A stretch of DNA of 64,000 bases, from contig NC_020911.1 of NCBI RefSeq assembly GCF_000155675.2, forward strand, positions 1,354,501 through 1,418,500. The letters run 5' to 3'. This document shows, piece after piece, positions 11,846 through 56,328 of this stretch. This DNA is from Octadecabacter antarcticus 307. Its GTDB lineage: Bacteria; Pseudomonadota; Alphaproteobacteria; Rhodobacterales; Rhodobacteraceae. Position numbers and translations under genes: made by a program. Numbering within the stretch: position 1 is the first letter of the stretch; the number at the start of each line of letters is the position of its first letter. The notes under the pieces were generated by a model. It was given only the letters and a program-made list of their open reading frames with translations, made no database searches and was not told the origin of the DNA.

Positions 11846-11889
11846 CCCCCCTCTCTGCAGATTGCTTTGCAATCGCCTGCCGGGCAGCG
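11846..11889. repeat. Palindromic mini-element A in IS5
   Basis: Head CCTCTCTGCAG, hairpin GATTGCTTTGCAATC, tail CTGCCGGGCAG. The sister IS5 copy has only two bases here. The same hairpin type recurs at 39168-39207. Confidence 0.85.
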
Positions 11890-11922
11890 GAGGGCGAAGG
11901 GAGGTGGAACGCCCGCAAGCAC

Positions 11923-11959
11923 TCCTCTCACACATGCAAGCATGTGTTGCTGGGCAAGG
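11923..11959. repeat. Palindromic mini-element B in IS5
   Basis: 37 bp absent from the sister IS5 copy. Head TCCTCTC, perfect stem ACACATGC/GCATGTGT around AA, tail TTGCTGGGCAAGG, a variant of the usual tail that keeps its own self-complementarity. Confidence 0.85.
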
Positions 11960-12057
11960 GGTGGTTCTAAACGCGGCCTCTGGCGCAAGATACACATTGG
12001 TATTGATGAGCAAACACTGGAAATACGCGCAGTCGAGGTCACGAGTAGCAGCATCAG

Positions 12058-12096
12058 CCCCTTTCATGGTTTGCAAACAAACCACTGCCGGGCAAT
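12058..12096. repeat. Palindromic mini-element C in IS5
   Basis: Head CCCTTTC, hairpin TGGTTTGCAAACAAACCA, tail CTGCCGGGCAA. The same hairpin occurs at 56162-56202, at a different point of the other IS5 copy. Confidence 0.85.
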
Positions 12097-12237
12097 GGAC
12101 GCACCTATTTTACCTGATCTGCTCAACCAGATCCCGTCGGACCAGGAAATAGGCAGCGTCACAGGGGACGTGGCTTACGATACCCGCAAATGCCATGATG
12201 CAATTTCTGCCCGCAATGCAAATGCTGTAATCCCCCC

Positions 12238-12299
12238 AGGGCTCCGCCCGTCCAGGGCTGAATTGATTCACTGGATCAATTTCAAAACGCCCCAAACCC
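12238..12299. repeat. Second type of insert (about 62 bp) in IS5
   Basis: Extra sequence relative to the sister copy, between the codons for IPP and RKN. It contains inverted arms AATTGAT/ATCAATT around TCACTGG and a GC-rich part (GGGCTCCGCCCGTCCAGGGC). It lacks the CCTCTC head and the standard tail, so it is treated as a different element. Confidence 0.65.
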
Positions 12300-12641
12300 G
12301 CGCAAGAATGCGAAGTTGTGGAAGCCTGACACACCCGGAGCCAGCGCGCGAAACGAAGCGGTGCTATCCTCAAAGTATCTGGGTCGAGCGTTGTGGCGAC
12401 AGTTAACTGGATATCACCGTCGAAGCCGCGTTGAGACGAAAATGCATTGTGTGAAATTGCTTGGTCAATGCCTGTTGCCGCGCGACTTTGATCGCCAGGT
12501 TGCGTAGGTCCAGATCCGCGTCGCGATACTAAACGGCTTCATAGCTCTTGGCATATCCAGTACCGTTGCCATAGGCTGAGTCCGTCTGGGGTGAGAGGAA
12601 GCACAACCTTAGGGAGATTTGTGCAACAAAGCCGTTTGATG

Positions 12642-12800
12642 TGCTAACACAGTATCTCAACACAATAATGCAACATAGTTTTCGACCACAGTGTTTGCGT
12701 GCATCGTTAAAATACTTTGATGTTGAACACTGTTGTTTCGCATGGCTTGTTGATGCTGACTTTTGTTGGATTTGACGTTGTGGGCGGGAGCAGGGTGTTC
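12642..12800. repeat. Dispersed intergenic repeat, copy 1
   Basis: Starts near TGTGCTAACACAGTATCTCA and has the core TTTTCGACCACAGTGTTTGC followed by a GCATGGCTTG segment. Related copies lie at 18678-18810, 19917-19994 and 20924-21065. No gene is seen between this repeat and the OYE gene end. Confidence 0.75.
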
Positions 12801-12907
12801 GCTGCTCAATGCACACAGACGGACTATCCGGGCACTCCAACCTATTGCCATCGATCCATCAATGGCCGCTTCAGGAGTTCACTGGAGACTACTTAGCGCA
12901 TCCAATG

Positions 12908-14131
12908 TTATTGGCGTCTGGTCTCGATCCACTTGTCCGTCGTGATCTTGATCTGCTGCATATAGCTTTCATGCCCCTCAATGACTGACAACGACAAGTC
13001 GGGTTGACCCGTCTTCCCGGCAAGCGCCAACTGAGCGCAAAACCAACTGAGAACTGCGCCACGAGGAAGAGTGTCAGCGGGAGGGAAATCTTGCTCAATC
13101 GCAGGAGCTTTATCAATCGTACCGTTGAGCAATTTTGCAGCGAAGCTTGGCTCGGTAATGAATGGACGTCCCATGCCAATCAGATCAGTCTTGCCATTTT
13201 CAATAGCATCGTTCATGATGTTTGCCGACCTGAACCCACCCGTGACCATCAACGGAATGTTTAGCACCGCCTTGATTGCGACGGCATAATCCAGAAAATA
13301 GGCTTCACGCGCTTTGGTTGATCCATTTTTTGATGTGTGTTGATAAGCAGTTGGTTCCTCAAAATTGCCACCTGAGATTTCGATGAAATCTACACCCTCA
13401 TCTTGCAGCATAATAGCAACCTCAACCGAGCCCGCGTGATCAAAGCCACCTTTTTGGAAGTCGGACGAGTTCAGCTTAATTGCTACGATAAAGCGAGGAT
13501 CAACAGCTGCGCGGACGGCCCTGACTACATCCAACGCCAACCGCGCCCTATTCTCCAAAGTGCCGCCCCAACGATCGGTGCGGGTGTTTATCCGTGGCGA
13601 AAGGGCCGAGCTCAGCAGATAGCCGTGGGCTGCATGAATTTCGATGCCATCAAATCCGGCGTCTTGCGCAAGCTTCGCTGAATGCACGAATTTCTTGATG
13701 ATTATACCAAATTCGGCTTCTGTCGCAGGGACCGGCTCACCATAACCAGCAAGGTTCAATTTCACATTAGAAATCGAGGTTGGGTGAGCATTTATCGCCT
13801 CAGGTGTTTGCCGCCCCGCATGGGCGAGCTGCACAAGAACTTTAGCCCCACCGCTTTGAGCTGCTGCCACAAGTGCTGACACTTGCTTCATGTCCGAATG
13901 TGCGTCCAAGACAAAATTTCCAGCATGTTCAAGGTGCATCCTGTCTACAGGCGTGTTGCCAGTGATCAGCAGGGCCGCTCCGCCGACGCTCCATTGTGCA
14001 AAGAGGTCAATTTGGGCCTGTGTCGGATTGTTATGCTCATCCGCAAGTGCCTCTGACATTGCAGATTTCACAATGCGGTTCTTGAGCAAAACACCGTTTG
14101 GCAGGACAAGCACTTTGTTGATCCCGTTCAT
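12908..14131 (-). CDS. Old Yellow Enzyme-type NADH:flavin oxidoreductase
   Basis: 407-residue FMN-dependent TIM-barrel reductase. Visible family marks are LPNGVLLKNRIVKSAMSE at the start, LVQLAHAGRQ, FDGIEIHAAHGYLLSSALSP (the H-x-A-H-G-Y-L pattern), NTRTDRWGGTLENRARL, and MVTGGFRSAN and DLIGMGRPFI for phosphate binding. Such enzymes reduce activated alkenes or enals, often detoxifying electrophiles; the substrate is not evident. It overlaps an upstream ArsR-type regulator by 4 bp, so the two form one operon probably induced by the stress that the enzyme relieves. Confidence 0.88.
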   Translation of the reverse strand: MNGINKVLVLPNGVLLKNRIVKSAMSEALADEHNNPTQAQIDLFAQWSVGGAALLITGNTPVDRMHLEHAGNFVLDAHSDMKQVSALVAAAQSGGAKVLVQLAHAGRQTPEAINAHPTSISNVKLNLAGYGEPVPATEAEFGIIIKKFVHSAKLAQDAGFDGIEIHAAHGYLLSSALSPRINTRTDRWGGTLENRARLALDVVRAVRAAVDPRFIVAIKLNSSDFQKGGFDHAGSVEVAIMLQDEGVDFIEISGGNFEEPTAYQHTSKNGSTKAREAYFLDYAVAIKAVLNIPLMVTGGFRSANIMNDAIENGKTDLIGMGRPFITEPSFAAKLLNGTIDKAPAIEQDFPPADTLPRGAVLSWFCAQLALAGKTGQPDLSLSVIEGHESYMQQIKITTDKWIETRRQ

Positions 14132-14430
14132 TGCAGCTCCTCTGACAGTTTGCTGAGTGTGGCCGCAATAACGTCTTCATCGCGACGGTAGAACGTCCAC
14201 TGGCCGTGCCGCTCCGATACAACAAGCCCTGCGTCTTTAAGCAACTTCATGTAGGTGGAAATCGTCGATTGCGAGAGACCTGCCTTTTCTTGAATGTAAC
14301 CAACGCAGACCCCGCTCAGGTCAGTATGCTCTGGTAGTGCGGGGGGGAAGTTGGAGCGTTTCTTGAGCCAGACAAGGATCTGGCGGCGAGTGGAGTTATT
14401 GAGGGCCGAAATGACCTTATCTACATTCAT
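14128..14430 (-). CDS. ArsR-family transcriptional regulator
   Basis: 100 residues from ATG at 14430 (MNVDKVISAL); the longer frame upstream has no family support and would run through the operator. Winged-helix marks: NSTRRQILVWLKK, VGYIQEKAGLSQSTISTYMK and LKDAGLVVSERHGQWTFY. It has a Cys (GVCVG) near the recognition helix, so redox or electrophile sensing is possible but not shown. It lies directly ahead of the OYE gene with an ATGA overlap and behind a palindromic site. Confidence 0.85.
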   Translation of the reverse strand: MNVDKVISALNNSTRRQILVWLKKRSNFPPALPEHTDLSGVCVGYIQEKAGLSQSTISTYMKLLKDAGLVVSERHGQWTFYRRDEDVIAATLSKLSEELQ

Positions 14431-14450
14431 ATATCGATATATCACGATAT
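14431..14450. promoter_or_regulatory. Likely ArsR-type operator
   Basis: ATATCGATATATCACGATAT is an imperfect palindrome directly before the chosen start of the ArsR gene, the usual place and shape for autoregulation by this family. Confidence 0.6.
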
Positions 14451-14566
14451 AAACCTTCAATGTCAAGGCCGAAACTAAATCACATCAAAGAAAGCGACGT
14501 TAACTGTCTTTCAGCTGACCCACACTTTCTGGCTGACAACTCCAACACACGAACATACTGTGTAAT

Positions 14567-14755
14567 TCAAAGATTATATCAAGGTCGTTGAGAGCTACTT
14601 CATTCCGTTCTTTGGCAAAGTATTCATTACCAACATCGACCATCAAAAGATCCAGGAATTCAATGCATGGCGCGTTGCGCAAATTGGCCATGAACCCAAA
14701 GCGTCAACGTTGAACACGCACAACTAAGCCATTAACAAGGTTTACGCTCAGGCTG
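14567..14755 (+). pseudogene. Integrase core-binding-domain remnant
   Basis: A frame without a start reads VVESYFIPFFGKVFITNID, then IQEFNAWRVAQIG and KASTLNTHN, a stop, and AINKVYAQAA. This is the SAM-like core-binding region of a tyrosine recombinase of the type seen at 45284-46193. The C-terminal catalytic part is missing; an IS1182-type fragment follows immediately. Confidence 0.6.
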
Positions 14756-15060
14756 CTGGGCAAATGCATGGGCGCTTTCGCGTCAGTGATTTGTTGCGTC
14801 ATCTGTTTAAGACGACTGTGGTGTGATGCATGGCGGAGGGGTTGGTGAGTGGCCAGCTCTTTGCGGCAGATGCCAGTTTAATCGAGGCAGATGCCAAAAA
14901 GCAGAACTCAACGCCGAAGGGAGATTGGGATGCATCGACGATAAATCCCGAAGATGCGTCGCGTGCTGTTCGCGAGTACCTCGACGTTCTGGGGTTCTGT
15001 CGCCTGATTTGCAGGAGAAGCTCGAGGCAAAAGCGAAAAATAAAAAGAAGATTTTATCCA
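14756..15060 (+). mobile_element. IS1182-type transposase fragment
   Basis: Internal piece of a transposase: HGRFRVSDLLRHLFKTTVV, a TGA stop, then MAEGLVSGQLFAADASLIEA and DASRAVREYLDVLGF. Both ends and the catalytic C-terminus are missing. It is of the same general type as the fragments at 5656 and 36159 but covers a later part of the protein. Non-functional. Confidence 0.7.
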
Positions 15061-15103
15061 AACCATATCTAGACCATCTTTTTGTTCGGTTGATCAACTA
15101 CGT

Positions 15104-15130
15104 CGCCCGGGCAAGCTGGCTGCCCGGGCA
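15104..15130 (-). terminator. Stem-loop behind katG
   Basis: GCCCGGGCA and TGCCCGGGC pair as a 9-bp GC stem around AGCTGGC, 10 bp after the katG stop. No long T tract follows on the katG strand, so termination strength is uncertain. Confidence 0.55.
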
Positions 15131-15139
15131 AATATTAGG

Positions 15140-18374
<3,235 letters not shown>

Positions 18375-18488
18375 CGGCAGTGTTGCACAGATCAACTTAA
18401 GTGCGGAACGCGCCCTACCCGAGATGGATTTCAGGCCGTGCGTTCGAAGTTGATCTTGTCACGCTTACGTTCCGGTCTCCCAACTCAT

Positions 18489-18598
18489 TTATGCAGCCTT
18501 TCGTTCAAAGCCCAAGGGACTTTTGCCCCCCAGCGATGAATGGCGGCGGCGCGGGCTATAGAATCCGTTGATATACTGGAAGATAGCCCCTTCGTTGC
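18489..18598 (-). mobile_element. IS3-family OrfB C-terminal remnant
   Basis: Reads IFQYINGFYSPRRRHSSLGG and KSPLGFERKAA then stop on the minus strand, the classic end of an IS3-type OrfB. Nothing else of the element remains beside it. Confidence 0.75.
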
Positions 18599-18677
18599 AC
18601 AGTCATTGCACAGTTTTTGGTGTGTTCACGAGCTTTTTGGCTGGGTAATTTACTGTGTTGAACACAGTGTTTGGGTT

Positions 18678-18810
18678 TGCTGTGCTAACACAGTATCTCA
18701 ACACAATCATGCGACACAGTAATTGAACACAGTTTTCGACCACAGTGTTTACGTGCACCTTCAAAACACAGCGTTGCTGAACACTTCTGTTACGCATGGC
18801 TTGCTGCACT
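18678..18810. repeat. Dispersed intergenic repeat, copy 2
   Basis: TGCTGTGCTAACACAGTATC start, core TTTTCGACCACAGTGTTTAC, then AAAACACAGCGTTGCTGAAC and ACGCATGGCTTGCTG. It is preceded by further AACACAG/CTGTGTT inverted pieces from 18655. Confidence 0.75.
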
Positions 18811-18920
18811 ACTGAAAACTGTAGGTATGAACTAAGAACGCAGCTGGGACAGGATACAGCATACTCAAAAAATTGCTGTCGATATTGTTCGGATCTTTGC
18901 GATTAACCTTTGATGTGACT

Positions 18921-19805: not shown

Positions 19806-19916
19806 TTACGATTTGATCAATCTGAAATAATAAGGGAAAGTCCGCAATCCAACTAGTAGGATCTGGCTAAGTTAGAGACAAGAGAGTGCTGTTAAAAACT
19901 GGTCTCCATCTCAGCT

Positions 19917-19994
19917 CAACATAGTTTTCGACCACAGTGTTTGCGTGCAACTTCAAAACACAGGGTTGTTCAACACTTTGGTTACGCACTGAAC
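19917..19994. repeat. Dispersed intergenic repeat, copy 3 (short)
   Basis: CAACATAGTTTTCGACCACA core with TTTGCGTGCAACTTCAAAAC and a truncated end, lacking the first 35 bases of copies 1 and 2. Confidence 0.75.
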
Positions 19995-26455: not shown

Positions 26456-27172
26456 TCAGGCTGCAACCACTCAGCCAGGTCACCGGATACGTAACTGGAT
26501 CCGTTGTCGCTCAGCAGCCGTGGTTTGTGAACGACGTGAACCTGATCACAGCCGGACGCCTTAAGGGCCAAGTCGAGCGTGTCAGTCACGTCCTCAGCCC
26601 GCATATTGGTGCAGAGTTTCCACCCTCTCGGGACATTGCTGCGCAATACCCTGCCGGGCAGCGGAGATGATGTAACGGCTGTAATCGTCTAGGATCGTAC
26701 TGAGATAGAACCAGCCCCATCCCAGAACCTTGAGATAGGTGAAGTCAGTTTGCCAAAGCTGGTTGATCGCTGTGGTTTTGTCTTTGAACGCACTGGCGGC
26801 TTTCATGACGATGAAGGCTGGGCTGGTGATCAGGTCATGCGCCTTCAGCATACGGTATACGGAAGCCTCTGATACGAAGTAGCTTTCCTTATCTGTGAAG
26901 GTCACTGCCAGTTCACGCGGTGACAGTTCTGTCTCTTCCAGCGCAAGGTCCACAACCCGACGTCGCACCTCGTCAGGAATACGGTTCCAGACGTGCTTTG
27001 GCTTGGGAGATTGGTCTTGCAAGCCAGCCTCACCACGCTGCCAATACCGATCATACCAACGGTAGAATGTGGTGCGTGGAATGCCGAGCTTGGCCAAAGT
27101 CAGGCGGGCCGGCAGATGCGACCCCTCGACCAGCTTGATGATCTCCAGCTTCTCTGATGCGGGATACCTCAT
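26456..27172 (-). pseudogene. IS3 orfB transposase, truncated and interrupted
   Basis: Integrase-type OrfB starting MRYPASEKLEIIKLVEGSHL, helix-turn-helix LGIPRTTFYRWYDRYW, then WQTDFTYLKVLGWGWFYLST with the first catalytic Asp and DDYSRYIIS. A 40-bp palindromic mini-element at 26623-26662 shifts the frame at IIS/WKLCTNM. The reading then resumes to SDNGSSYVSGDLAEWLQ, where the IS is cut. The Glu-bearing C-terminus is gone. Not functional. Confidence 0.85.
26623..26662. repeat. Palindromic mini-element D in IS3 orfB
   Basis: 40 bp: head CCCTCTCGGGAC, hairpin ATTGCTGCGCAAT, tail CTGCCGGGCAGC. The same insert is at 44693-44732 in copy 2; the hairpin type recurs at 39372-39412 in another IS. 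Confidence 0.9.
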
Positions 27173-27592
27173 TCGTGGTCGCCCCCACCGTCGAACATGC
27201 TTTTTTTGAGCAAGCGGAGTTCAAGTGTTTGCTCCGCAACGACTTCCTTCAGATCACGTGCTTCACGGCGCAGATCCTTCACCTCGTCGGTTGTGGCGGC
27301 GCGGGCGGTATCGCCCGTAAGGCGCTTCTTACCGGCCTCCATAAAGTCCTTGGACCATTTGTAGTAGATGCCTTGGGAGATGCCTTGGGAGATGCCTTCA
27401 CCCCTCTCGTGCATGTAAACATGCACTGCCGGGCAGTGGACCACACAGCTCGGCAATGCTGTCTTCCCCACGCAGACCGTCTAAGACGATCCTAATCTTC
27501 TCTTCAGATGAATAATGCTTGCGGGTCGCCCGTTTGATATCTTTGACGATCTTCTCGCCCGGGCTTTTGCGTGTTCCAGTTGTCTGTCTCAT
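27169..27592 (-). pseudogene. IS3 orfA, interrupted by a mini-element
   Basis: Starts MRQTTGTRKSPGEKIV with helix-turn-helix SSEEKIRIVLDGLRGEDSI and AELC, then the frame is broken by the mini-element at about 27401-27437. It resumes GISQGISQGIYYKWSKDFME and ends KKSMFDGGGDHE, overlapping orfB. OrfA normally supplies DNA binding to the transposase. Confidence 0.82.
27401..27437. repeat. Palindromic mini-element E in IS3 orfA
   Basis: Head CCCCTCTC, perfect stem GTGCATGT/ACATGCAC around AA, tail CTGCCGGGCAG. Copy 2 of the IS carries the same insert at about 43930-43967. Confidence 0.9.
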
Positions 27593-38664: not shown

Positions 38665-38823
38665 TTCAGGCTTTACCACAGCATCTATGACATCACCTGA
38701 CGATTATTCGCAATCAGCCTCCAATCTGGGATGCTAAAAGTGGGCTCAAATCACGCTCAGTATTGCAGCTACGAAACACCTCCTGAATGCTGTGAAAGAT
38801 GTGTGTTCCGAGCCTTTCATTAA

Positions 38824-38860
38824 CTGCCCGGCAGTCGATGCTAAGCATCGAAGAGAGGGG
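38824..38860. repeat. Palindromic mini-element F in IS3 fragment
   Basis: On the minus strand: head CCCCTCTCT, stem TCGATGC/GCATCGA around TTA, tail CTGCCGGGCAG. The intact IS3 copy has only the codons for RNEW at this place. Confidence 0.88.
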
Positions 38861-39167
38861 CGAACCGTCCGATTGTATCGCTCGGTATAGGCATTCTGTT
38901 GGGGTTTCCTGGCTGGATGTAGCATAGGGTGATGTGATGCTTTGATGCCCATTCCTGCAGCTTTGAACTGACGTATTCAGGGCCATTATCCACGCGTATC
39001 ATCGCGGGCTTTCCGCGCCATTGGATGACTTGATTAAGGCTGCGCACAACCCGTGCTGCTGGCAGTGAGAAGCCCACGTCAATGGCCAAACCTTCGCGAT
39101 TGAAGTCGTCTATGATGTTCAATGTCCTGAACGATTTCCCGTTCCACAACTGGTCTACCATAAAGTT

Positions 39168-39207
39168 CCTTTCTGCAGATTGCTTCGCAATCGCCTATCG
39201 GGCGAGG
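39168..39207. repeat. Palindromic mini-element G in IS3 fragment
   Basis: Exactly 40 bp between the codons for WSM and the next Asp/Asn-Phe. Head CCTTTCTGCAG, hairpin GATTGCTTCGCAATC, tail CCTATCGGGCGAGG, a diverged version of the standard tail. Confidence 0.88.
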
Positions 39208-39371
39208 CATAGACCACACTTGGTTTGGTCGATCTGGCACTGACAACGGGTCGGGGCGCTCACGCTTAAGCCGTTTGCGGGGCTTGATCCGCAGGTTCAG
39301 CTCCAGCTCACAATAAATCCGGCGGACCCGTTTATGGTTCCATTTGAACCCTTTCACATTGCGCAGATACA

Positions 39372-39412
39372 ACCTCTCGGGACATTGCTTCGCAATACCC
39401 TGTCGGTCGATG
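39372..39412. repeat. Palindromic mini-element H in IS3 fragment
   Basis: 41 bp within the codons for GLCFLYLRN. Head CCTCTCGGGAC, hairpin ATTGCTTCGCAAT, tail CCCTGTCGGTCGATG, the most diverged tail in the set. Confidence 0.85.
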
Positions 39413-39554
39413 GGTAACACAATCCAAAGCCCCAGTTCTTACGGGCCTTGGTCAAAGCAATCAGCCAATCTTCAATCTCTTCATTTTCGTTAGCGAAGAT
39501 GGCACCTGTAGAGTGGGGAGACGTATAACACGAACCCACAACTGGCGAGATATC

Positions 39555-43774: not shown

Positions 43775-44186
43775 ATGAGACAGACAACTGGAACACGCAA
43801 AAGCCCGGGCGAGAAGATCGTCAAAGATATCAAACGGGCGACCCGCAAGCATTATTCATCTGAAGAGAAGATTAGGATCGTCTTAGACGGTCTGCGTGGG
43901 GAAGACAGCATTGCCGAGCTGTGTGGTCCACTGCCCGGCAGTGCATGTTTACATGCACGAGAGGGGTGAAGGCATCTCCCAAGGCATCTACTACAAATGG
44001 TCCAAGGACTTTATGGAGGCCGGTAAGAAGCGCCTTACGGGCGATACCGCCCGCGCCGCCACAACCGACGAGGTGAAGGATCTGCGCCGTGAAGCACGTG
44101 ATCTGAAGGAAGTCGTTGCGGAGCAAACACTTGAACTCCGCTTGCTCAAAAAAAGCATGTTCGACGGTGGGGGCGACCACGAATGA
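43775..44186 (+). pseudogene. IS3 orfA, interrupted by mini-element J
   Basis: Starts MRQTTGTRKSPGEKIV and reads normally to SIAELC. The mini-element at about 43930-43967 then shifts the frame by one; the rest (GISQGIYYKWSKDFMEAGKK to DGGGDHE) is open in the second frame. Lacks the 12-bp duplication of copy 1. Confidence 0.85.
43930..43967. repeat. Palindromic mini-element J in IS3 orfA (copy 2 of E)
   Basis: Complement of element E: CTGCCCGGCAG tail, stem GTGCATGT/ACATGCAC, GAGAGGGG head. It is at the same site as in IS3 copy 1, so it was inherited with the IS rather than inserted twice. Confidence 0.9.
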
Positions 44187-45203
44187 GGTATCCCGCATCA
44201 GAGAAGCTGGAGATCATCAAGCTGGTCGAGGGGTCGCATCTGCCGGCCCGCCTGACTTTGGCCAAGCTCGGCATTCCACGCACCACATTCTACCGTTGGT
44301 ATGATCGGTATTGGCAGCGTGGTGAGGCTGGCTTGCAAGACCAATCTCCCAAGCCAAAGCACGTCTGGAACCGTATTCCTGACGAGGTGCGACGTCGGGT
44401 TGTGGACCTTGCGCTGGAAGAGACAGAACTGTCACCGCGTGAACTGGCAGTGACCTTCACAGATAAGGAAAGCTACTTCGTATCAGAGGCTTCCGTATAC
44501 CGTATGCTGAAGGCGCATGACCTGATCACCAGCCCAGCCTTCATCGTCATGAAAGCCGCCAGTGCGTTCAAAGACAAAACCACAGCGATCAACCAGCTTT
44601 GGCAAACTGACTTCACCTATCCCAAGGTTCTGGGATGGGGCTGGTTCTATCTCAGTACGATCCTAGACGATTACAGCCGTTACATCATCTCCGCTGCCCG
44701 GCAGGGTATTGCGCAGCAATGTCCCGAGAGGGTGGAAACTCTGCACCAATATGCGGGCTGAGGACGTGACTGACACGCTCGACTTGGCCCTTAAGGCGTC
44801 CGGCTGTGATCAGGTTCACGTCGTTCACAAACCACGGCTGCTGAGCGACAACGGATCCAGTTACGTATCCGGTGACCTGGCTGAGTGGTTGCAAGGGAAA
44901 GGCATGAAGCATTCTCGCGGCGCGCCATATCATCCGCAAACACAGGGCAAGATCGAGCGATGGCATCAAACCTTGAAGAACCGCATCCTCTTGGAAAACT
45001 ACTTCCTGCCAGGTGATCTTGAAGCCCAAATTGAAGCATTCGTCGATCACTACAACCACCAGCGCTTCCACGAGAGTCTGAACAACGTCACGCCGTCTGA
45101 CGTCTACTTCGGCCGTGACAAAGCCATTCTACAACAAAGGGAAAGGATCAAACGAAAGACACTCGAAGCGCGCCGCTTGCATCACAGCCTGCACGCCACA
45201 TAA
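44183..45203 (+). pseudogene. IS3 orfB, complete but interrupted by mini-element K
   Basis: OrfB of about 325 residues with DDE core: WQTDFTYPKVLGWGWFYLST (Asp), LLSDNGSSYVSG (Asp) and TQGKIERWHQTLKNRI (Glu). The reading frame is broken only by the 40-bp insert at 44693-44732; removing it joins YIIS to WKLCTNMRAEDV in frame. The C-terminus LEARRLHHSLHAT is intact. Confidence 0.88.
44693..44732. repeat. Palindromic mini-element K in IS3 orfB (copy 2 of D)
   Basis: 40 bp, complement of element D, at the same codon position. Removal restores the orfB frame exactly. Confidence 0.9.
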
Positions 45204-48182: not shown

Positions 48183-48226
48183 TATTTGCGTTAAACTGCT
48201 AGGGCTTTATGGCCAAAGGAACGAAT

Positions 48227-49120: not shown

Positions 49121-50001
49121 TGGAATATGTACTTGAACCATTTACCTACGGCTTCATGATCAATGCGATGTGGGTGTCCGCCCTCGTCGGTGGCGTATGC
49201 GCATTTTTATCCGCATATTTGATGCTCAAAGGCTGGTCTCTGATCGGGGACGCGCTGTCCCATTCGGTCGTTCCGGGGGTGGCAGGGGCCTATATTCTTG
49301 GCCTGCCGTTTGCATTGGGCGCGTTTGTTGCTGGCGCACTGGCGGCGGGTGCGATGCTATTTTTATCCGAACGGTCAGGCCTGAAGGTCGATGTGATCAT
49401 CGGGTTGATTTTCACGTCCTTCTTCGGGCTGGGCCTGTTCATCGTGTCGATCAACCCGATGTCGGTGTCGATCCAGACGATCACTATGGGCAATATTTTG
49501 GCCATCACACCGGAAGACACGCTACAGTTGGCTATCATCGGGTTTGTGTCGCTGGCCGTGTTGCTGGCCAAATGGAAAGACCTCATGGTCACGTTTTTTG
49601 ATGAAAATCACGCGCGCACGATTGGTCTGCGCCCTGGCATGCTCAAGGCGGTTTTCTTCATTTTATTGTCTGCGTCTGTGGTTGCCGCCATGCAAACCGT
49701 CGGTGCGTTTCTAGTAATTGCCTTAGTCGTCACACCCGGGGCCACGGCCTACTTGCTTTGCGACAGGTTTCCGCGTTTGATAATCACATCCGTCGCCATC
49801 GGGTCGATCACCAGTTTCATCGGCGCTTATAGTAGCTATTTCCTAGATGGCGCGACCGGCGGCATCATCGTGACATTGCAAACCCTTATCTTCCTCGTGG
49901 CGTTTGTTTTTGCCCCCAAGCACGGGTTACTGGCCGCCAAACGCAAAGCCAAACAGGCGCTGGAACGTGGTCCTGGCGATCTAGCAGCGGAGTTTAAATA
50001 A
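49117..50001 (+). CDS. sitC: Manganese ABC transporter permease
   Basis: 294 residues, ABC-3 family permease with eight or nine helices. [20 protein letters not shown] is the family hallmark near the N-terminus, and [20 protein letters not shown] the conserved C-terminal block. The basic tail ([13 protein letters not shown]) is cytoplasmic. Overlaps both neighbours (ATGA with sitB, TAATG with sitD), so translation is coupled. Confidence 0.9.
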
Positions 50002-50852
50002 TGGATACCCTTCTTTTACCGTTCCAGTTCGCGTTCATGCAGAACGCGTTTTACATCTCGATGATTGTGTCCGTTCCAACGGCCTTATTGTCGTGTTTTC
50101 TGGTGATGAAAGGCTGGGCGTTGATGGGTGATGCCGTCAGTCACGCGGTGCTGCCGGGCATTGTTCTGGCCTACATCATCGGTATCCCCCTAATCATCGG
50201 TGCGTTCATCGCTGGGATGACCTGTGCACTTGCGACTGGTTACCTGTCCACCAACAGTCGCGTGAAGCAGGACACCGTCATGGGTGTTGTGTTTTCGGGC
50301 ATGTTTGGTGTTGGCATCGTGCTGTACGTGTCGGTCGAGACGGCCATGCACCTCGATCATATTCTATTTGGCAACATGCTGGGTGTTGAACCGCACGAGC
50401 TATGGACCGCTGGCATGATCTCTGCGGGCGTTGGTCTGATACTGGCGCTAAAATGGAAGGATTGGTTGCTGCACAGCTTTGACCCCGCACAGGCACGCGC
50501 GTCAGGTCTTTGGGTCAATTGGCTGCACTATGGATTGCTCGCCGCGCTTTCGCTGACCATCGTGGCCACTCTATCTGCCGCGGGCCTGATCCTTGCGATT
50601 GGTTTACTGATTGCACCGGGTGCCATTGCGTTCTTGGTCGTGCGCAAATTTTCCACAATGTTATGGGTGTCTGTCATAGTATGTATGGCATCGATGCTAT
50701 TGGGAACTTATGCCAGTTTCTTTCTCGACAGTGCGCCTGCGCCAACGATCATTCTCGTTATGACCGCATTGTTTATCGCAGCGTTTATCAGACGTCAGAT
50801 CATCACGCGGCAAGCCTCTATGCAGCGGGTAGATGATGCGGTAAATTCTTGA
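50001..50852 (+). CDS. sitD: Manganese ABC transporter permease
   Basis: 283 residues, second ABC-3 permease. Family blocks are ALMGDAVSHAVLPGIVLAYI and AGLILAIGLLIAPGAIAFLV, and it is clearly paralogous to SitC. Likely forms the SitC/SitD heterodimer channel. It overlaps the stop of sitC by one base and precedes an Irr-like regulator gene with a start just past its own stop. Confidence 0.9.
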   Translation: MDTLLLPFQFAFMQNAFYISMIVSVPTALLSCFLVMKGWALMGDAVSHAVLPGIVLAYIIGIPLIIGAFIAGMTCALATGYLSTNSRVKQDTVMGVVFSGMFGVGIVLYVSVETAMHLDHILFGNMLGVEPHELWTAGMISAGVGLILALKWKDWLLHSFDPAQARASGLWVNWLHYGLLAALSLTIVATLSAAGLILAIGLLIAPGAIAFLVVRKFSTMLWVSVIVCMASMLLGTYASFFLDSAPAPTIILVMTALFIAAFIRRQIITRQASMQRVDDAVNS

Positions 50853-50866
50853 ACTATGATGACGAC

Positions 50867-51295
50867 ATGGCGGCGCACCTGTCTGTGCATGGCGTGCGCC
50901 CCACACGGCAACGGCTTGCGATTGCTAATGTCCTTTTCAAAGACGGAGGGCGCCATATCGATGCAACGTGCCTGTATGTAGAGCTTGGGGCTTCCGCGAC
51001 AAAAGTGTCCCTTGCGACGGTCTACAATGTTTTGAAGGCGTTTGACAAAGCAGGCCTAGTAAGGCGTGTGGCCTTGGGCGGTGAGCGAGTTTTGTATGAT
51101 ACCGACACAAGCAATCACCACCACTTTTTTGTTGTCTCGGAAGATAGGGTCATTGATATAAAAGCGTCGAACGCAGATGGTACCTCGCCGACAATTCCAG
51201 ACGGCTATCGTATTTCGCGCGTCGAGACAGTCATCCACCTCGTTCAGGATGATGCGCGCGTGTTTGCGGCGGGGACATTGCTTGGCAACGCCTGA
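50867..51295 (+). CDS. Fur-family regulator, Irr-like
   Basis: 142 residues from ATG at 50867 (MAAHLSVHGVRPTRQR); a TTG at 50849 would overlap sitD. The recognition helix region is VSLATVYNVLKAFDKAGLVR and the metal or haem region has YDTDTSNHHHFFV, the three-His pattern of Irr proteins, without the CxxC pair of Fur. Irr regulates iron and haem genes in alphaproteobacteria and responds to manganese. Its place at the end of the sit operon ties iron status to manganese uptake. Could be another Fur subtype. Confidence 0.78.
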   Translation: MAAHLSVHGVRPTRQRLAIANVLFKDGGRHIDATCLYVELGASATKVSLATVYNVLKAFDKAGLVRRVALGGERVLYDTDTSNHHHFFVVSEDRVIDIKASNADGTSPTIPDGYRISRVETVIHLVQDDARVFAAGTLLGNA

Positions 51296-51307
51296 CAGTA
51301 TGCTCGC

Positions 51308-51757
51308 CTATTCAATAAACTTGGCAAAGGCGGCAAGGCTCTGTTCGCTAACGTGGTGCTCAATGCCCTCGGCGTCCGCTTCGGCAGTCTCCGCGTCTAC
51401 TCCAAGCGAGATGAGAAAATCACGCACAAGCACGTGACGGCGACGCGATGTTTCGGCGAGGTTACGGCCCGCGTCGGTCAGGACCAAAGGCTGATAGGGT
51501 AGCTCTAGGATCATCCCCTCGCTTACCAGACGTTGCACATGATTGCTGACCGTTGCGTTGGAGACGCCGAACCGTTCGGCCAGATGGCCAGTGCGAACAT
51601 CACCCTGCGTACGGCCTAGCTCGGATATCATCTCGACGTAGTCCTCGACGATCTCACGACGGTGCGCGTCTCGCACGCGTAGAAAATTGCGGGCCTGTGC
51701 ATCTGGGAGGAGCATTTCAGTGTCTACGGGATGTGGCTCAGGCCGTTGTGTTACCAT
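51308..51757 (-). CDS. mntR: DtxR/MntR-family manganese-dependent regulator
   Basis: 149 residues. Helix-turn-helix TGHLAERFGVSNATVSNHVQ, then LPYQPLVLTDAGRNLAETSR and the metal-binding helix HVLVRDFLISLGVDAETAEADAEGIEHHVSEQ (33 residues), with the E-x-x-x-HH pattern of MntR. It is convergent with the Irr-like gene, 12 bp apart, and adds a third manganese/iron regulator to this locus. Its own promoter region faces the 51864 gene. Confidence 0.87.
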   Translation of the reverse strand: MVTQRPEPHPVDTEMLLPDAQARNFLRVRDAHRREIVEDYVEMISELGRTQGDVRTGHLAERFGVSNATVSNHVQRLVSEGMILELPYQPLVLTDAGRNLAETSRRRHVLVRDFLISLGVDAETAEADAEGIEHHVSEQSLAAFAKFIE

Positions 51758-51863
51758 GCATCAATTCTGGACCAATATAAAATTCTCTACAATTTTTAGC
51801 TCAGGCTAAATATATTGATGTAGCGTGTTACCGTGATGTGCTAACACACCAGAAAGACGGCAG

Positions 51864-52367
51864 ATGGCAAATTTGAACGTAGCATCCCGATACGCGCCGG
51901 ATACCAATACCTATTCCGACAAAACCTGGCAAAATCTTACTCTAGCGGCAAACAGCGCTTGGGAAGAAGGCGACGATCACGCAGCGTGTAGTTTTTATAA
52001 TTCTGCGTTGAAAGAAGCGAAACGTTTGCTGAACCTAGCCGAGCATGGTTCAGGACCTACGGAAGCACCAATGATCATGGTGATCTCGCATCACAATCTG
52101 GCGGAAGCTGCGTTGCGGATCGGACAACCCGATGTCGCACTCGCTCACTACCAAACACCGTTTGACCGTTTGCTGGTACTTGCTAGCCTGAAATCGACAC
52201 CCGCAGATTTGCGTCAAACCTGCATCGCCAATCTCAAAGAAGCGACGACCGCACTTGTGGTCCATCTGCAATTTACAGGTGCCCACGTTTGGCACGTCGG
52301 CGATATTATTCGCAAAGCGCAATTCGCTGTTGCGTCACGGCCTGCGGTGGGCGTTCGCCTTTCTTAA
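51864..52367 (+). CDS. Hypothetical TPR-like cytoplasmic protein
   Basis: 167 residues, no named family. Helical pairs such as AANSAWEEGDDHAACSFYNS / ALKEAKRLLNLAE and MVISHHNLAEAALRIG / QPDVALAHYQTPFDRLL look like TPR repeats. No signal peptide or membrane segment. Divergent from mntR and directly upstream of a superoxide dismutase remnant, so a role in manganese or superoxide physiology is possible but unproven. Confidence 0.65.
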   Translation: MANLNVASRYAPDTNTYSDKTWQNLTLAANSAWEEGDDHAACSFYNSALKEAKRLLNLAEHGSGPTEAPMIMVISHHNLAEAALRIGQPDVALAHYQTPFDRLLVLASLKSTPADLRQTCIANLKEATTALVVHLQFTGAHVWHVGDIIRKAQFAVASRPAVGVRLS

Positions 52368-52391
52368 TCTTAGACTAAAAAGGGAAGCTAC

Positions 52392-52523
52392 ATGTTCAAG
52401 TTACCCGATCTGCACTACGCTACGAATGCCTTCGATAACTGCTTCATCATATGGCGCGGAAGGGGAAGGGGACATTCGTCGCCTTGTGCTCAGAGAGGGT
52501 TATGTCATTGTATTGAAGAGTGA
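52392..52523 (+). pseudogene. Fe/Mn superoxide dismutase N-terminal remnant
   Basis: 43 codons beginning MFKLPDLHYATNAFDN, which matches the conserved start of Fe/Mn superoxide dismutases (F-x-LPDLPYA-x-x-AL). After residue 18 the reading is unrelated (IIWRGRGRGH) and ends at TGA. A ribosome site (AGGGAAG) and position directly behind the hypothetical gene suggest a former two-gene unit whose dismutase has been deleted. Similarity rests on about 12 residues, so the call is moderate. Confidence 0.5.
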
Positions 52524-52536
52524 GGGCGGCCCCGAC

Positions 52537-53080
52537 ATGACGACGAGACAAGACATCGAAGACATGATCCACAGGGTCGCGCTGCATGACCGCGGTGCGT
52601 TTGAGACGCTTTATTCGGCGACCTCTGCGAAACTATTCGGCATTATCCTGCGTGTATTGAAAGACCGCGCCGCAGCAGAGGAGGTTTTGCAGGAGGTATA
52701 TCTGCGGTTATGGCAGGGCGGGGCGGAAACGTTCGCGGCTGGTAAAGCCAGCCCGATCAGTTGGCTGGCAACCATTGCGCGCAACCGTTCAATTGATCGG
52801 TTGCGAAAAAAACAGACCCAGCAGTCCACTTGAGGACGCGCCAGAAATTGCAGAGCCGGGATTGGGGCCAGAAGGCCTTGCGATCGCGGCATCTGAACGG
52901 GCACAGATCAACGGATGTTTGGACGAACTAAAACCCGACCGTGCGGCAGCAGTACGCAGCGCCTATCTGGACGGGGAAACTTATGTTGACCTTGCGGCGC
53001 GTTTTGACGTGCCGTTAAATACAATGCGAACATGGCTGCGGCGCAGCCTGATAAGTTTGAAAGACTGTTTGAGCAAGTGA
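52537..53080 (+). pseudogene. ECF sigma factor, frameshifted in a seven-A run
   Basis: Region 2 is read from 52537 (TTRQDIEDMIHRVALHDRGA, then AAAEEVLQEVYLRLWQGG and WLATIARNRSIDRLRKK). After CGAAAAAAA at about 52804 the frame runs into a stop at 52833, while region 4 continues one frame over (NRPSSPLEDAPEIAEPG, then VRSAYLDGETYVDLAARFDV and TMRTWLRRSLISLKDCL) to 53080. One A fewer would give an intact protein of about 181 residues. Next to it is an RskA-type anti-sigma gene. It may be inactive, phase-variable or rescued by slippage. Confidence 0.8.
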
Positions 53081-53784
53081 TCGACGAGAGCATCACCCCA
53101 GAAGACGGCACGCCGCGCGACGATGTTCTCGCGGCGGAACTCAGTCTTGGGCTGCTCAAAGGGGATGAGTTGGCGCAGGCGACACGTCGTGCACGCATTG
53201 ATCAGACCTTTGCAGGTTTGGTGGAAGATTGGGATGTCCATTTCAGCACTTTGACTGAAGAAATAGCGCCGGTTGCGCCGCCCAAAGGCCTGTTCAAAAA
53301 GATTAAAGCAGACGCATACCCCGAAAGCCCGAAACGCATTTGGAAAAACCTCAGGATTGTGCCTGCCTTTCTGTGTGCCGGTGCCGCGGCGCTGACCCTA
53401 TTGGTGGCGTTGCATCTCGGCGGCTACATGCAGACAAATCCTGTTACGCCGACATCCGTGGCCCGCCTGGTTGCGCAAGACAACAGCCTCGTGGTTGCGG
53501 CGGCCTACGTTGGGGGCAGTGGGCAGTTGTTTGTGGAACGCCAAGTCGGGGCCAGCGCGCAAGGTCGTTCACTAGAACTATGGGTCATTGCAGGCGACGC
53601 GGCCCCTGTATCGTTGGGTATTCTGGCGATAGATGAAACGATCGATGAAATTATAGTCCCCGAAAACCTTCAGGACCAAATGGTTGGTGCGACGCTTGCA
53701 ATCTCTGACGAACCCTTTGGCGGATCACCAACTGGCGCGCCGACCGGTGCCGTGCTTGCTGCGGGCGAAATCACCACGCTGTAA
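53077..53784 (+). CDS. RskA-family anti-sigma factor
   Basis: About 235 residues. GTG at 53077 is chosen because it overlaps the sigma stop (GTGA) and gives the typical DESITPEDGTPRDDVLAAEL start; the open frame begins at 53032. The N-terminal domain (ELSLGLLKGDELAQATRRAR) is cytoplasmic and binds sigma; a membrane helix follows (IVPAFLCAGAAALTLLVALH), then a periplasmic RskA domain (FVERQVGASAQGRSLELWVI). It would hold the ECF factor inactive until an envelope signal. Intact despite its frameshifted partner. Confidence 0.85.
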   Translation: MIDESITPEDGTPRDDVLAAELSLGLLKGDELAQATRRARIDQTFAGLVEDWDVHFSTLTEEIAPVAPPKGLFKKIKADAYPESPKRIWKNLRIVPAFLCAGAAALTLLVALHLGGYMQTNPVTPTSVARLVAQDNSLVVAAAYVGGSGQLFVERQVGASAQGRSLELWVIAGDAAPVSLGILAIDETIDEIIVPENLQDQMVGATLAISDEPFGGSPTGAPTGAVLAAGEITTL

Positions 53785-53910
53785 GTCACGTGGTTTTCAC
53801 GTCACTGTGAACCTATGAAATGTCCCGAAACTCTCCTTCCATATGATGCGTTGCTTTTGGCATCGGGATCGCAATCGTGCGGTCCTTAAAGACCAATTTG
53901 GAGACGTTTT

Positions 53911-54471
53911 ATGACCATTAAGACATTCGCAACCGCTGCCGCACTTACACTAACCGCAGGTATGGCTTTCGCTGACGCGCACGCATCCAACCCAATGGTT
54001 GGCGGCGCAGAAATGCTGGCCGAAAAGAACATCATCGAGAACGCAGTAAACTCCCCGATCCACACAACACTCGTGGCGGCTGTTATGCAGGCTGGCCTCG
54101 TTGAAACATTGTCCGGACCTGGCCCGTTCACAGTGTTTGCCCCAACCGACGAAGCATTCGGCCTGATCACCGACGAGACACTCGGCGCGCTGATGATGGA
54201 CGAGAACAGGGCACAGCTAGCCACGATCCTGACCTGCCACGTTGTCGGCGCTGAAGTCTTCGCTGACGCAATCGGCGGAATGATCGCAGGCGATGGCGGC
54301 GCTCACCCAGTTGAAACACTTGGCGGCTGTACATTGATGGCAGAAATGTCCGGCGATGCCATAACGTTGACGGACGAAAACGGCCGGTTGGCTACTGTCA
54401 CAATCGCAGACGTTGATCAGTCCAATGGTGTGATCCACGTCATTGACCGCGTGATGCTGCCCAAGCAGTAA
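53911..54471 (+). CDS. Fasciclin-domain secreted protein
   Basis: 186 residues. A signal peptide (TFATAAALTLTAGMAFADAH) is followed by one FAS1 domain: NAVNSPIHTTLVAAVMQAGL, GPGPFTVFAPTDEAFGLI and, at the end, SNGVIHVIDRVMLPK. FAS1 proteins mediate adhesion in the envelope; in roseobacters they often sit beside ECF sigma/anti-sigma pairs, so this is a likely target of the adjacent factor. It is 126 bp behind the anti-sigma gene. Confidence 0.88.
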   Translation: MTIKTFATAAALTLTAGMAFADAHASNPMVGGAEMLAEKNIIENAVNSPIHTTLVAAVMQAGLVETLSGPGPFTVFAPTDEAFGLITDETLGALMMDENRAQLATILTCHVVGAEVFADAIGGMIAGDGGAHPVETLGGCTLMAEMSGDAITLTDENGRLATVTIADVDQSNGVIHVIDRVMLPKQ

Positions 54472-54618
54472 GTCCGACTTCTAAGATCAGACGAACGGCC
54501 GAGGGCAGCAAACCATCCCAGGGGGAGCCTTCGGTCACATCTGCGTGCGCTATGTCATATTTTGTCCCAGAGACACAGCGCACGTTTTACAACACCCCCG
54601 AACAATAAGGAGTTTGTC

Positions 54619-55086
54619 ATGAATCGCCGGACCTTTTCGATAACCGCCCTTACCGCTGCCGCTTTTGGCACAACCCGCGTTGCCGCAGCCGAGAGCCCGT
54701 TTGAGATCACCCGCACACCAGCAGAGTGGCGCGCCCTGCTAACCGACATACAATACAATGTGATGCGGGAGGACGGTACCGAACGGTCGGGGACATCGCC
54801 TTTGGATAAGAATTACGCAGCAGGCATTTATCACTGCCGTGGTTGCGATCAGGCGCTCTATTCTTCGGAGCACAAGTTTGACAGCCGCACTGGATGGCCG
54901 TCGTTCTTTGATGTCTTGCCAAACGCGATCCAGACCAAAGCGGACGACACATTTTTTTCGTCGCGCACAGAATGCCATTGTGATCGATGTGGCAGCCATT
55001 TGGGACATATTTTCGATGATGGCCCAGCCCCAACAGGCCTGCGCCACTGTTTGAACGGTGTCAGCTTGGTATTCCGCGCCTCATAA
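54619..55086 (+). CDS. msrB: Periplasmic peptide-methionine (R)-S-oxide reductase
   Basis: 155 residues from ATG at 54619 (AAGGAG before it). A Tat-type signal starts MNRRTFSITALTAAAFG. The MsrB fold follows: structural zinc Cys pairs HCRGC and CHCDRC, GWPSF, HLGHIFDDGP and the catalytic Cys in LRHCLNGVSL. It repairs oxidised methionine in exported proteins with reduced thioredoxin-like partners. Likely in the stress regulon of this island, 147 bp behind the fasciclin gene. Confidence 0.9.
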   Translation: MNRRTFSITALTAAAFGTTRVAAAESPFEITRTPAEWRALLTDIQYNVMREDGTERSGTSPLDKNYAAGIYHCRGCDQALYSSEHKFDSRTGWPSFFDVLPNAIQTKADDTFFSSRTECHCDRCGSHLGHIFDDGPAPTGLRHCLNGVSLVFRAS

Positions 55087-55292
55087 ATCCATTGAACAAC
55101 ACCTGAGTGGGCGGCGACTGCCTGTGCCAGAGTGCTTAGCCGGTTTTTGTGCCGTTTCCTGCCACACTGCGGCGGCTTTCTGGTTACATCCCGGGTTGAC
55201 TGTCCCCTTAACCGCATCATCTCATGGCGCAGATATCCTAGCCTACTAAAGGGCTTGCGCTCTAATGTCTGGGTTAAAGCTGTATAATTTAC
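55087..55292. other. Gap before IS5 element, no recognised gene
   Basis: About 205 bases with no gene features and no clear terminator for msrB. The right boundary is the IS5 end. Confidence 0.4.
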
Positions 55293-55356
55293 CACCTTCT
55301 TCGGCTTTGTTGCACAAATCGCCCTTATGGCGTGCTTCCCCTGACCCCTGACGGAT

Positions 55357-56328
55357 TCAGCCTACAGTAACGGTGTTTGGGATGCCAAGGGCGGTGAAGC
55401 CGTTGAGTATCGCGGCACGGATTTGGACTTCCGCAACTTGCCGGTCAAAGTCTCGTGCGGCCAGGCGCTGCCCGAGTAGTTTCAAACAATGCATCTTTGT
55501 CTCAACACGACTCCTGCGGTGGTATCCGCTCAAGCGACGCCATTGAGCGCGGCCGAGATCCTTTGAGGACTGTACCGCTTCGTTTCGGGCTCTGGCCCCC
55601 AGCGTATCCGGCTTCCATAGCTTGGCATTCTTGCGTGGCGGGATGACAGCACGGGCATTGCGGGCCGCAATCGCATCATGGCATTTGCGGGTGTCATATG
55701 CCCCATCTGCTGTGACACTGCCAATCTTCTGATCTGGTGTGATCTGACCGAGAAGGTTGGGCAACATGGGTGGGTCTCCAATGCTGCTACTCGTCACTTC
55801 GACCGCGCGTATCTCCAACGTTTCTTCATCAATCCCTATATGTATCTTGCGCCACACCCGACGTTTCGGCCCGCCATGCTTGCGAGCGTTCCACTCACCT
55901 TCGCCCTCAACTTTGATGCCGGTACTGTCGATAAGGAGGTTTAGCGGGCCCTTTGAGCCCTGATACGGGATGGTAACCGATAGCCTTTTCTGACGCCGAC
56001 ATAACGTGCTGAAGTCTGGGACCTCCCAGTCAAGGTCGATCAATTTCAACAGGCTTTCCACAAAGCCCGTCGCCTGCCTCAAAGGCATTCCGAACAGCAC
56101 TTTCAACGTGAGACAGGCTTGGATCGCCGCGTCGCTATAGCGTGGCTGGCGGCCCCGTTTGCCCCCCTCTCATGGTTTGCAAACAAACCACTGCCGGGCA
56201 ACGGTAGGCGCAGCTTTCCAAGTGACCTCTGGGTTAAACCAAATGGTCAGTGACCCGCGTCGCTTCAGGGCCTTGTTATACTCAGGCCAGTTCCTCGTGC
56301 GGTAAATCGGGGCGATAGGTTTACTCAT
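55357..56328 (-). pseudogene. IS5-family transposase interrupted by a palindromic insert
   Basis: Starts MSKPIAPIYRTRNWPEYNKA and runs to TWKAAPT, where the mini-element brings in VARQWFVCKP and a stop. The rest is open again from GKRGRQPRYSDAAIQACLTL to LGIPNTVTVG. DDE core: LLIDSTGIK (first Asp), SVTADGAYDTRKCHDAIA (second Asp) and GYHRRSRVETKMHC (Glu region). With the insert in place no functional protein is expected. Confidence 0.88.
56162..56202. repeat. Palindromic mini-element I in IS5
   Basis: Head CCCCCTCTC, hairpin TGGTTTGCAAACAAACCA, tail CTGCCGGGCAA. Same subtype as element C but at a different point of the IS5 sequence. Confidence 0.9.

What the first reader, a model, noticed from the sequence alone, without database searches (positions are those of the whole stretch)
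11846..56202. Family of about 36-44-bp palindromic mini-insertions found only inside IS transposase genes
Eleven copies (11846, 11923, 12058, 26623, 27401, 38824, 39168, 39372, 43930, 44693, 56162) share a plan: head CCTCTC or close, a short hairpin, then CTGCCGGGCAG or a variant that is itself self-complementary. Sister sequences in this window show them to be true insertions: the intact IS3 transposase at 7785 lacks the three in 38788-39505, and removing the 40-bp insert at 44693 restores the orfB frame. All eleven lie in transposase genes of three IS types and none in host genes or gaps. Where the reading frame is clear, they inactivate it. The pattern differs from REP elements, which are intergenic. 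A non-autonomous element homing to IS genes, or surviving only there, would be new to me.
Basis: partly seen in the sequence, partly recalled or inferred. Interest (0 to 1): 0.85.

Follow-up and report, generated by a model that had tools for sequence, protein, structure and literature searches.

The report
Tiny mobile hairpins inside transposon genes
DNA hairpins of about 40 letters have inserted themselves again and again into the transposon genes of a marine bacterium and its relatives, by a mechanism that is not yet known.

Summary
The window's eleven copies (nine insertion events) belong to a family with 295 pattern matches in the host genome, by size probably Octadecabacter antarcticus 307. 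The element is CCCTCTC, a freely varying but self-complementary stem, then TGCCGGGCARYG, usually 37-43 bp. Of 160 non-redundant empty-site alignments, 79 are gap-free and show insertion without target duplication, preferring |GAYR. Stem changes are compensatory. In a held-out 800-kb sample 97 of 100 copies lie within 600 bp of transposase homology (random 15.6%). Of 95 distinct events none lies over 1.5 kb from such homology.

"Only in IS genes" is too strong: other Rhodobacteraceae carry copies in intergenic repeats, a traG-like gene and methylase genes of viral contigs. One IS5 carrying a copy was seen at 11 places, probably 22.

Best reading: very small non-autonomous mobile hairpins moved by an unknown enzyme, a new variant of the small-dispersed-repeat/REP kind. 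Unexpected lead: insertions fall exactly before catalytic-aspartate codons more often than expected (11 of 113 against 1.4). That test is post hoc but suggests true homing.

The parts
11849..11889 (+). element copy (stem TGCAGATTGC..GCAATCGCC) in an IS5-type transposase relic
   Evidence: covariance model E 5e-5; DDE_Tnp_1 in window:11807-12403:+
11923..11959 (+). degenerate element copy in the same IS5-type relic
   Evidence: stem scan; covariance model E 0.65
12059..12097 (+). element copy (ATGGTTTG class); the same site holds other stem classes in L134 and L137
   Evidence: E 2e-11 (a training sequence of the model); shared site
26623..26663 (+). element copy in an IS481-type transposase (gene on - strand)
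   Evidence: E 3e-6; HTH_32 and rve in window:26597-27220:-
27402..27438 (+). element copy in the same IS481
   Evidence: E 7e-7; empty homologue of the twin site, L051:2678 against L166:4630
38822..38859 (-). element copy in an IS3-type transposase
   Evidence: E 1e-4; missing from the sister IS3 at 7785-8882
39167..39207 (+). degenerate element copy in the same IS3 region
   Evidence: sequence only; not found by the model or the stem scan
39372..39412 (+). degenerate element copy in the same IS3 region
   Evidence: E 0.04; not found by the stem scan
43929..43965 (-). element copy; same insertion as 27402 in the second IS481 copy
   Evidence: E 7e-7; copies 98-100% identical
44692..44732 (-). 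element copy; same insertion as 26623 in the second IS481 copy
   Evidence: E 3e-6
56165..56203 (+). element copy near the 5' end of an IS5 transposase gene (gene on - strand); this IS with its insert was seen at 11 places
   Evidence: E 2e-12 (a training sequence of the model); DDE_Tnp_1_5 and DDE_Tnp_1 in window:55360-56169:-
7785..8882 (+). IS3 transposase ORF lacking the insert: empty-site comparator for 38822-38859

Best explanation
These are very small (usually 37-43 bp) non-autonomous mobile elements of Rhodobacteraceae. SHOWN: constant ends (CCCTCTC; TGCCGGGCARYG) flank a stem of very varied sequence that stays self-complementary; copies are insertions without target duplication, preferring |GAYR, in both orientations; nearly all sampled copies in the host genome lie in or close to IS DNA; at least one IS carrying a copy has multiplied. 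INFERRED: an enzyme supplied in trans recognises the folded strand plus its conserved ends. Read on the bottom strand this is a hairpin with a 5-nt tail (CRYTG) inserted 3' of YRTC, the geometry of single-strand (HUH, IS200/REP-type) insertion. The new copy joins another mobile gene, favoured by target choice as well as by survival, and is then multiplied with that IS. Stem arms are kept complementary at least partly by replication template switching rather than only by selection.
For: Copy number and controls. Location: held-out 97 of 100 within 600 bp of transposase homology against 15.6%; 0 of 95 events in distant host DNA, where about 83 would be expected in intergenic DNA alone at the density seen in transposase DNA. 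Empty sites: 160 non-redundant alignments, 79 gap-free at 72% identity or more giving -1 C .49, +1 G .75, +2 A .62, +3 Y .82, +4 R .74; exact flanks in L055:18630 against L055 and L117:6598 against L218. Recent movement: same-genome pairs with and without the insert at 95-99% identity over 40 bp each side (L013:980 against L059, L009:2234 against L274; both of the second junction class). Covariation: 43 double-changed cells against 9.4 in shuffles, score 0.318 against 0.076, G-T pairs 5 of 440 cells. Template switching: five loci (three independent by eye) where the 3' side has become the exact complement of the CCCTCTC head. Multiplied IS. Clade: of 144 genomes drawn across the class only two, both of the host's family, had matches (strict E, one length class, candidates capped).
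Against: No mobilising enzyme found. PF01797 (Y1, HUH) matches are absent from G031 and G020, which have 17 and 12 pattern matches, although G000 and G014 have 24 and 40. Of seven Y1 loci looked at, five have no element nearby, one (L262) has one in a neighbouring IS5, and one (L267, a fragment) has elements on both sides. No longer relative with these ends was evident. Some insertions follow a second junction pattern (empty NGGY, filled GGAY) that the simple model does not explain. DNA folding of six copies is only modestly better than shuffles (z -0.8 to -2.9).
Confidence: 0.62

Rival explanations
1. Survival only: insertion is nearly random at GAYR, and copies last only in IS DNA because nothing there matters; IS relics are the genome's long-lived junk.
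For: Dense arrays sit in degraded relics (13 copies between 13.9 and 16.9 kb of L051). Elsewhere copies exist in DNA judged intergenic. O. antarcticus has 361 pseudogenes, 282 of them TE-linked (PMC3646047, passages).
Against: No event in about 156 kb of intergenic DNA far from transposases although 83 would be expected at the same density; if only 20% of it tolerates insertion the chance is 6e-8 (assumes equal exposure). Survival does not predict an excess at catalytic codons.
Confidence: 0.2
2. IS as vehicle: insertions gather in IS lineages over many hosts and long times and are carried in, so IS DNA has had far more exposure than local intergenic DNA.
For: A loaded IS5 has multiplied. Seven of 284 insertion sites are shared between this genome and other loci, three of them with the same stem class (by eye). 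Stem classes recur across genera.
Against: 226 of 284 sites are single-copy in the sample, and close in-genome presence/absence pairs exist. By published counts O. arcticus has nearly twice the TEs (1175 against 626; PMC3646047, passages) but 46 against 295 pattern matches, taking G014 to be O. arcticus.
Confidence: 0.3
3. True homing to transposase genes: target choice recognises features shared by transposases of several IS families, notably the codons of catalytic aspartates, either as parasitism of IS or as a host device that silences them.
For: 11 of 113 empty sites lie exactly before a catalytic-like Asp codon; expected 1.4 from the target preference, 3.3 after a rough upper bound of 2.4-fold for detection bias (P 3e-4), in IS3, IS5, IS481 and IS1182. 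11 of 25 Asp-codon junctions against 11% background, P 3.5e-5. Seven of 58 multi-copy sites hold unrelated stems (by eye), i.e. repeated insertion at one site or exchange of the stem in place.
Against: The motif patterns were chosen after looking; the DGAYD site counts three times among the eleven. Copies also occur outside IS. No recognition device is known.
Confidence: 0.15
4. A divergent REP family moved by a RAYT-like Y1 transposase.
For: Imperfect hairpin of REP size with a conserved short tail; no target duplication; insertion 3' of a short motif on one strand.
Against: Not extragenic in this genome; no GTAG/CGTC tag; no consistent Y1 presence.
Confidence: 0.12
5. Chance or ancestral palindromes rather than insertions.
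For: Short palindromes are common.
Against: No hits in shuffled or reversed sequence; empty-site alignments.
Confidence: 0.01

Closest known systems
Small dispersed repeats (SDR) of cyanobacteria, Elhai et al. 2008
   Same: Very small, differing sequences sharing one fold with compensatory changes, often inside other mobile DNA or nested, recently mobile, one clade (all recalled from the abstract; paper not held; cited in PMC2884548 and PMC3116915, passages).
   Different: Here 37-43 bp, not 21-27 (recalled); constant ends around one variable stem; mainly in IS transposase genes; different phylum; no sequence link tested.
REP / REPIN elements with RAYT transposases
   Same: Short imperfect hairpins with conserved ends, high copy, non-autonomous.
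   Different: REPs are usually extragenic and most carry a GTAG or CGTC tag (PMC12306157 and PMC3733652, passages); these are mainly intragenic, untagged and without a consistent Y1 gene.
Rickettsia palindromic elements (RPE)
   Same: Palindromic insertions inside protein genes of Alphaproteobacteria (recalled).
   Different: RPE are about 100-150 bp, in host genes and kept in frame (recalled); here 19 of 98 events have a length divisible by three and no host-gene event was seen among 95.
IS200/IS605 insertion geometry
   Same: No target duplication; insertion 3' of a short motif when read on the bottom strand (family features recalled).
   Different: No transposase linked, no guide-to-target pairing shown, stem sequence not conserved.
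MITEs
   Same: Non-autonomous, high copy.
   Different: No terminal repeats of a parent found, no target duplication, much shorter.

Membership tests
REP | extragenic location | tested here: not met
   (host genome); some intergenic copies elsewhere
REP | short palindrome in high copy | tested here: met
REP | GTAG or CGTC tag (most REPs) | tested here: not met
   edges of 70 distinct copies
REP | associated RAYT/Y1 transposase | tested here: inconclusive
   Y1 matches in 16 of 96 genomes, absent in copy-bearing G031 and G020; five of seven Y1 loci without a nearby element
MITE | target site duplication | tested here: not met
MITE | autonomous parent with the same ends | tested here: inconclusive
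   no pair of half-elements framing a longer element was evident in the sequence held; the rest of the genome was not searched for it
SDR-like very small mobile elements | shared fold supported by compensatory changes | tested here: met
SDR-like very small mobile elements | recent mobility | tested here: met
   close presence/absence pairs
SDR-like very small mobile elements | lying inside other mobile DNA, nesting | tested here: met
   two distinct nested cases in three loci
SDR-like very small mobile elements | sequence relation to SDR families | not tested
   SDR sequences not held
IS200/IS605-type mobility | strand-specific ssDNA excision and insertion by a Y1 enzyme | not testable with these tools
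   needs biochemistry
RPE | in-frame insertion in host genes (recalled) | tested here: not met
   19 of 98 lengths divisible by 3; 0 of 95 events in distant host DNA
Rfam RNA family | match to a curated family at the gathering score | tested here: not met
   0 matches in the window

The most novel reading that the evidence does not exclude
A homing system for transposases: a roughly 40-nt hairpin, inserted without target duplication, is directed to transposase genes of unrelated IS families and preferentially to the codons of their catalytic aspartates, acting either as a parasite of parasites or as a device that cripples transposases while leaving IS ends mobile.
Probability: 0.13. Interest if true: 0.93.

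Novelty: new variant of a known kind. Interest (0 to 1): 0.72.

Why it matters
It would be among the smallest mobile elements known and the first I know of concentrated in transposase genes. Its stem can take very many sequences provided it pairs, which implies recognition by shape plus short fixed ends. If target choice truly favours catalytic codons of transposases, it would be an unknown way in which mobile DNA is attacked or parasitised. The genomes, empty sites and covariance model make this testable now. I found no description of it in the held library, which lacks most subscription papers.

Tried and rejected
Rfam gave nothing in the window. Translational-bypass or intron-like function: rejected because elements sit in both orientations (44 sense, 30 antisense, 24 unplaced of 98) and lengths are not coordinated with frame. 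Rickettsia-type in-frame elements: rejected. A Y1 transposase as universal driver: not supported. An autonomous parent: none evident. The intergenic GAGTATTT..AGATGAAG family as ancestor: rejected; it is a separate repeat, into which elements seem to have inserted in L118, L127, L156 and L212 (by eye). A test of frame disruption by any open frame was uninformative: of 70 empty sites with a long open run only 10 filled ones were clearly interrupted. The first stem table had a strand-offset bug and was redone. The scan hits L053:6249 and L268:12006 (inside an IS630-type gene) and L151:6544 look false and were left in the counts. One search used transposase queries partly picked from the copies' own neighbourhoods, and three of them unassigned; one search dropped those three and added the held-out set. 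In one search, 18 of 120 genome loci and 9 of 22 viral loci held only a strict match without a scored stem and are not in the 152 and 14; by eye about 14 of the 18 are real copies with irregular stems, and the 9 viral ones are chance. A first catalytic-codon test (11 of 19 against 7.8%) was biased by requiring alignments that end at the junction, and one of its eleven (DEGW) is not catalytic; hence, where 42 empty sites without a spanning transposase alignment and 5 with an element in the subject were dropped from 160.
Full report
WHAT IS THERE. The eleven copies in the window exist where stated, and a covariance model built from 44 copies recovers ten of them. The strict pattern CTCTCN{10,30}CTGCCGGGCA has 295 matches in the 4,875,481-base genome and its reversed control none. 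Two contigs of 4,812,600 and 62,881 bases match the published 4.88 Mb and 63-kb plasmid of Octadecabacter antarcticus 307 (PMC3646047, passages); the identification is an inference, as is that of G014 with O. arcticus 238.

ANATOMY. Profiles of 70 distinct copies and empty sites fix the element as CC-CTCTC-[stem]-TGCCGGGCA-RYG; 373 of 385 copies are 37-43 bp long. The stem takes 230 sequences in these 385 copies yet keeps pairing: for 44 copies of one length, 94.3% of cells pair against 78.9% in shuffles, 43 cells are changed on both sides against 9.4, and sliding the partner by one column halves pairing. G-T pairs are rare (5 of 440 cells), which fits DNA-level palindromes. Five loci (three independent by eye) have the tail changed into the exact complement of the head, CCCTCTC-stem-GAGAGGG, as expected of template switching at quasipalindromes; that such switching can make and keep hairpins is in print (PMC8794818, PMC7202029; search listing and start of abstract). 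So covariation here need not mean selection on structure.

INSERTION. Of 383 distinct flank pairs, 276 had a candidate empty homologue, 160 after removing redundancy; five of the 160 subjects proved to hold an element nearby. The insert equals the pattern plus five bases and no target base is duplicated. In 79 gap-free alignments the empty target is -1 C .49, +1 G .75, +2 A .62, +3 T/C .82, +4 G/A .74. In a minority the empty site reads NGGY and the filled one GGAY, which I cannot explain. Pairs with 95-99% identity over 40 bp each side in the same genome point to recent movement. Orientation relative to the gene is mixed: 44 sense, 30 antisense, 24 unplaced. Two distinct nested insertions were found, in three loci.

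LOCATION. Forty stretches (39 evenly spaced on the chromosome, one on the plasmid) plus the window held 92 copies. A second, held-out set of forty held 100, of which 78 lie within 30 bp, 97 within 600 bp and 100 within 1.5 kb of transposase homology (random 7.9, 15.6 and 23.1%). Of the 80 stretches and the window, 31 had no transposase hit and no copy. Ninety-five distinct events: 70 in transposase DNA, 25 within 1.5 kb of it, none in 156 kb of intergenic and 1.11 Mb of coding DNA farther away. By Pfam domains (family names mine) contexts in this genome include IS3, IS5, IS1182, IS481, IS110, IS21 and IS30, and an IS6-like one by homology to a typed gene; elsewhere also IS66, IS91 and IS256 and IS630 by alignment only.

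WIDER FAMILY. Of 148 genomes, host included, 58 had pattern matches, the largest others 46, 35 and 26; matches outside the host's family look stemless by eye where listed. In a class-wide draw of 144 genomes two had matches to the model, the host and one other of its family (E at most 1e-4, at most 46 candidates scored per genome). A scan of species genomes stopped at 120 stretches; of the 80 printed titles 76 are Rhodobacterales by name or by my knowledge, the rest a Labrenzia, a Vreelandella and two unclassified alphaproteobacterial records. In these and 22 viral stretches, 113 of 152 and 4 of 14 scored copies were within 600 bp of my transposase set (random 23.5 and 4.9%). Of the other 39, Pfam put 13 in or beside transposases, two of them weakly or only nearby. 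Twelve lie elsewhere: L195 (TraG-like gene), L126 (between phage portal and terminase genes) and, judged intergenic by position, L118, L127, L138 (two), L156, L185, L187, L212 and L219 (two). Fourteen stay unassigned. Among viral copies, L222 and L234 sit at the same place of a C5 methylase gene, L242 in an IS5-type gene and L229 in a frame with a weak IS match. Four intergenic copies sit in one repeat (GAGTATTT..AGATGAAG) and those of L138, L187 and L219 in another (by eye). So the rule is mobile or repeated DNA, chiefly IS, not IS alone.

FATE OF THE HOST IS. 79 of 98 distinct insertions have a length that shifts the frame, but the IS5 at about 55.3-56.4 kb with its insert was seen at eleven places at about 99% identity, and 22 genome matches share its exact model score. 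A loaded IS can therefore still be spread, probably in trans (inference).

TARGET CHOICE. Seven of 58 multi-copy sites hold clearly different stems (by eye), e.g. before the first catalytic Asp of IS5, LLI|DSTG, in L046, L188, L200 and L254; this means repeated insertion at one site or exchange of the stem in place. Among 113 empty sites with a transposase alignment across the junction, 25 fall right before an Asp codon and 11 of those fit catalytic motifs, background 11%, P 3.5e-5. Against a target-preference model built from all 113 sites the expectation is 1.4; allowing a rough 2.4-fold detection bias 3.3, P 3e-4. With one pattern added after seeing hits it is 13 against 1.1. The motifs were post hoc and DGAYD counts three times, so this is a lead, not a proof; but it is not what pure survival predicts.

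MECHANISM AND JUDGEMENT. The lack of duplication, hairpin shape, conserved short tail and one-sided target motif resemble single-strand HUH insertion, but Y1 genes do not track the copies and no parent was evident. I file the family as a new variant of very small mobile repeats (SDR/REP-like in working), a proven member of neither by the tests made.

Noticed in passing
L222:8882-8913, L234:1529-1560 (viral contigs): Elements with different stems sit at the same place of a C5 DNA methylase gene in two viral contigs.
   Followed up: partly
L138, L187, L219 (other Rhodobacteraceae): Copies lie in a second dispersed sequence (GGTTCTATTTCAA .. GGAAAATCCGTCAAACCCG), seen by eye.
   Followed up: no
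G023, G053, G055, G059, G061 and others: A repeat GAGTATTTN{3,8}AGATGAAG occurs up to 30 times per genome in 9 of 41 genomes of the family; its spacer looks genome-specific.
   Followed up: partly
L056:5040: Left flank reads as the first and right flank as the second catalytic motif of an IS5 gene: looks like a deletion between two elements.
   Followed up: no
G000 and G014: 24 and 40 matches to Y1 (IS200-type) transposases, against matches in 16 of 96 genomes searched; none of seven looked at has a mini-element inside the gene.
   Followed up: partly
L039, L053, L245, L265, L271: Element variants that have become perfect palindromes, CCCTCTC-stem-GAGAGGG-CAGTG.
   Followed up: partly
L090:2791 and L193:7925: In two genomes a copy lies beside a gene for a beta-helix/PKD-domain protein; the L090 copy aligns with an IS5-type N-terminal reading.
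   Followed up: no
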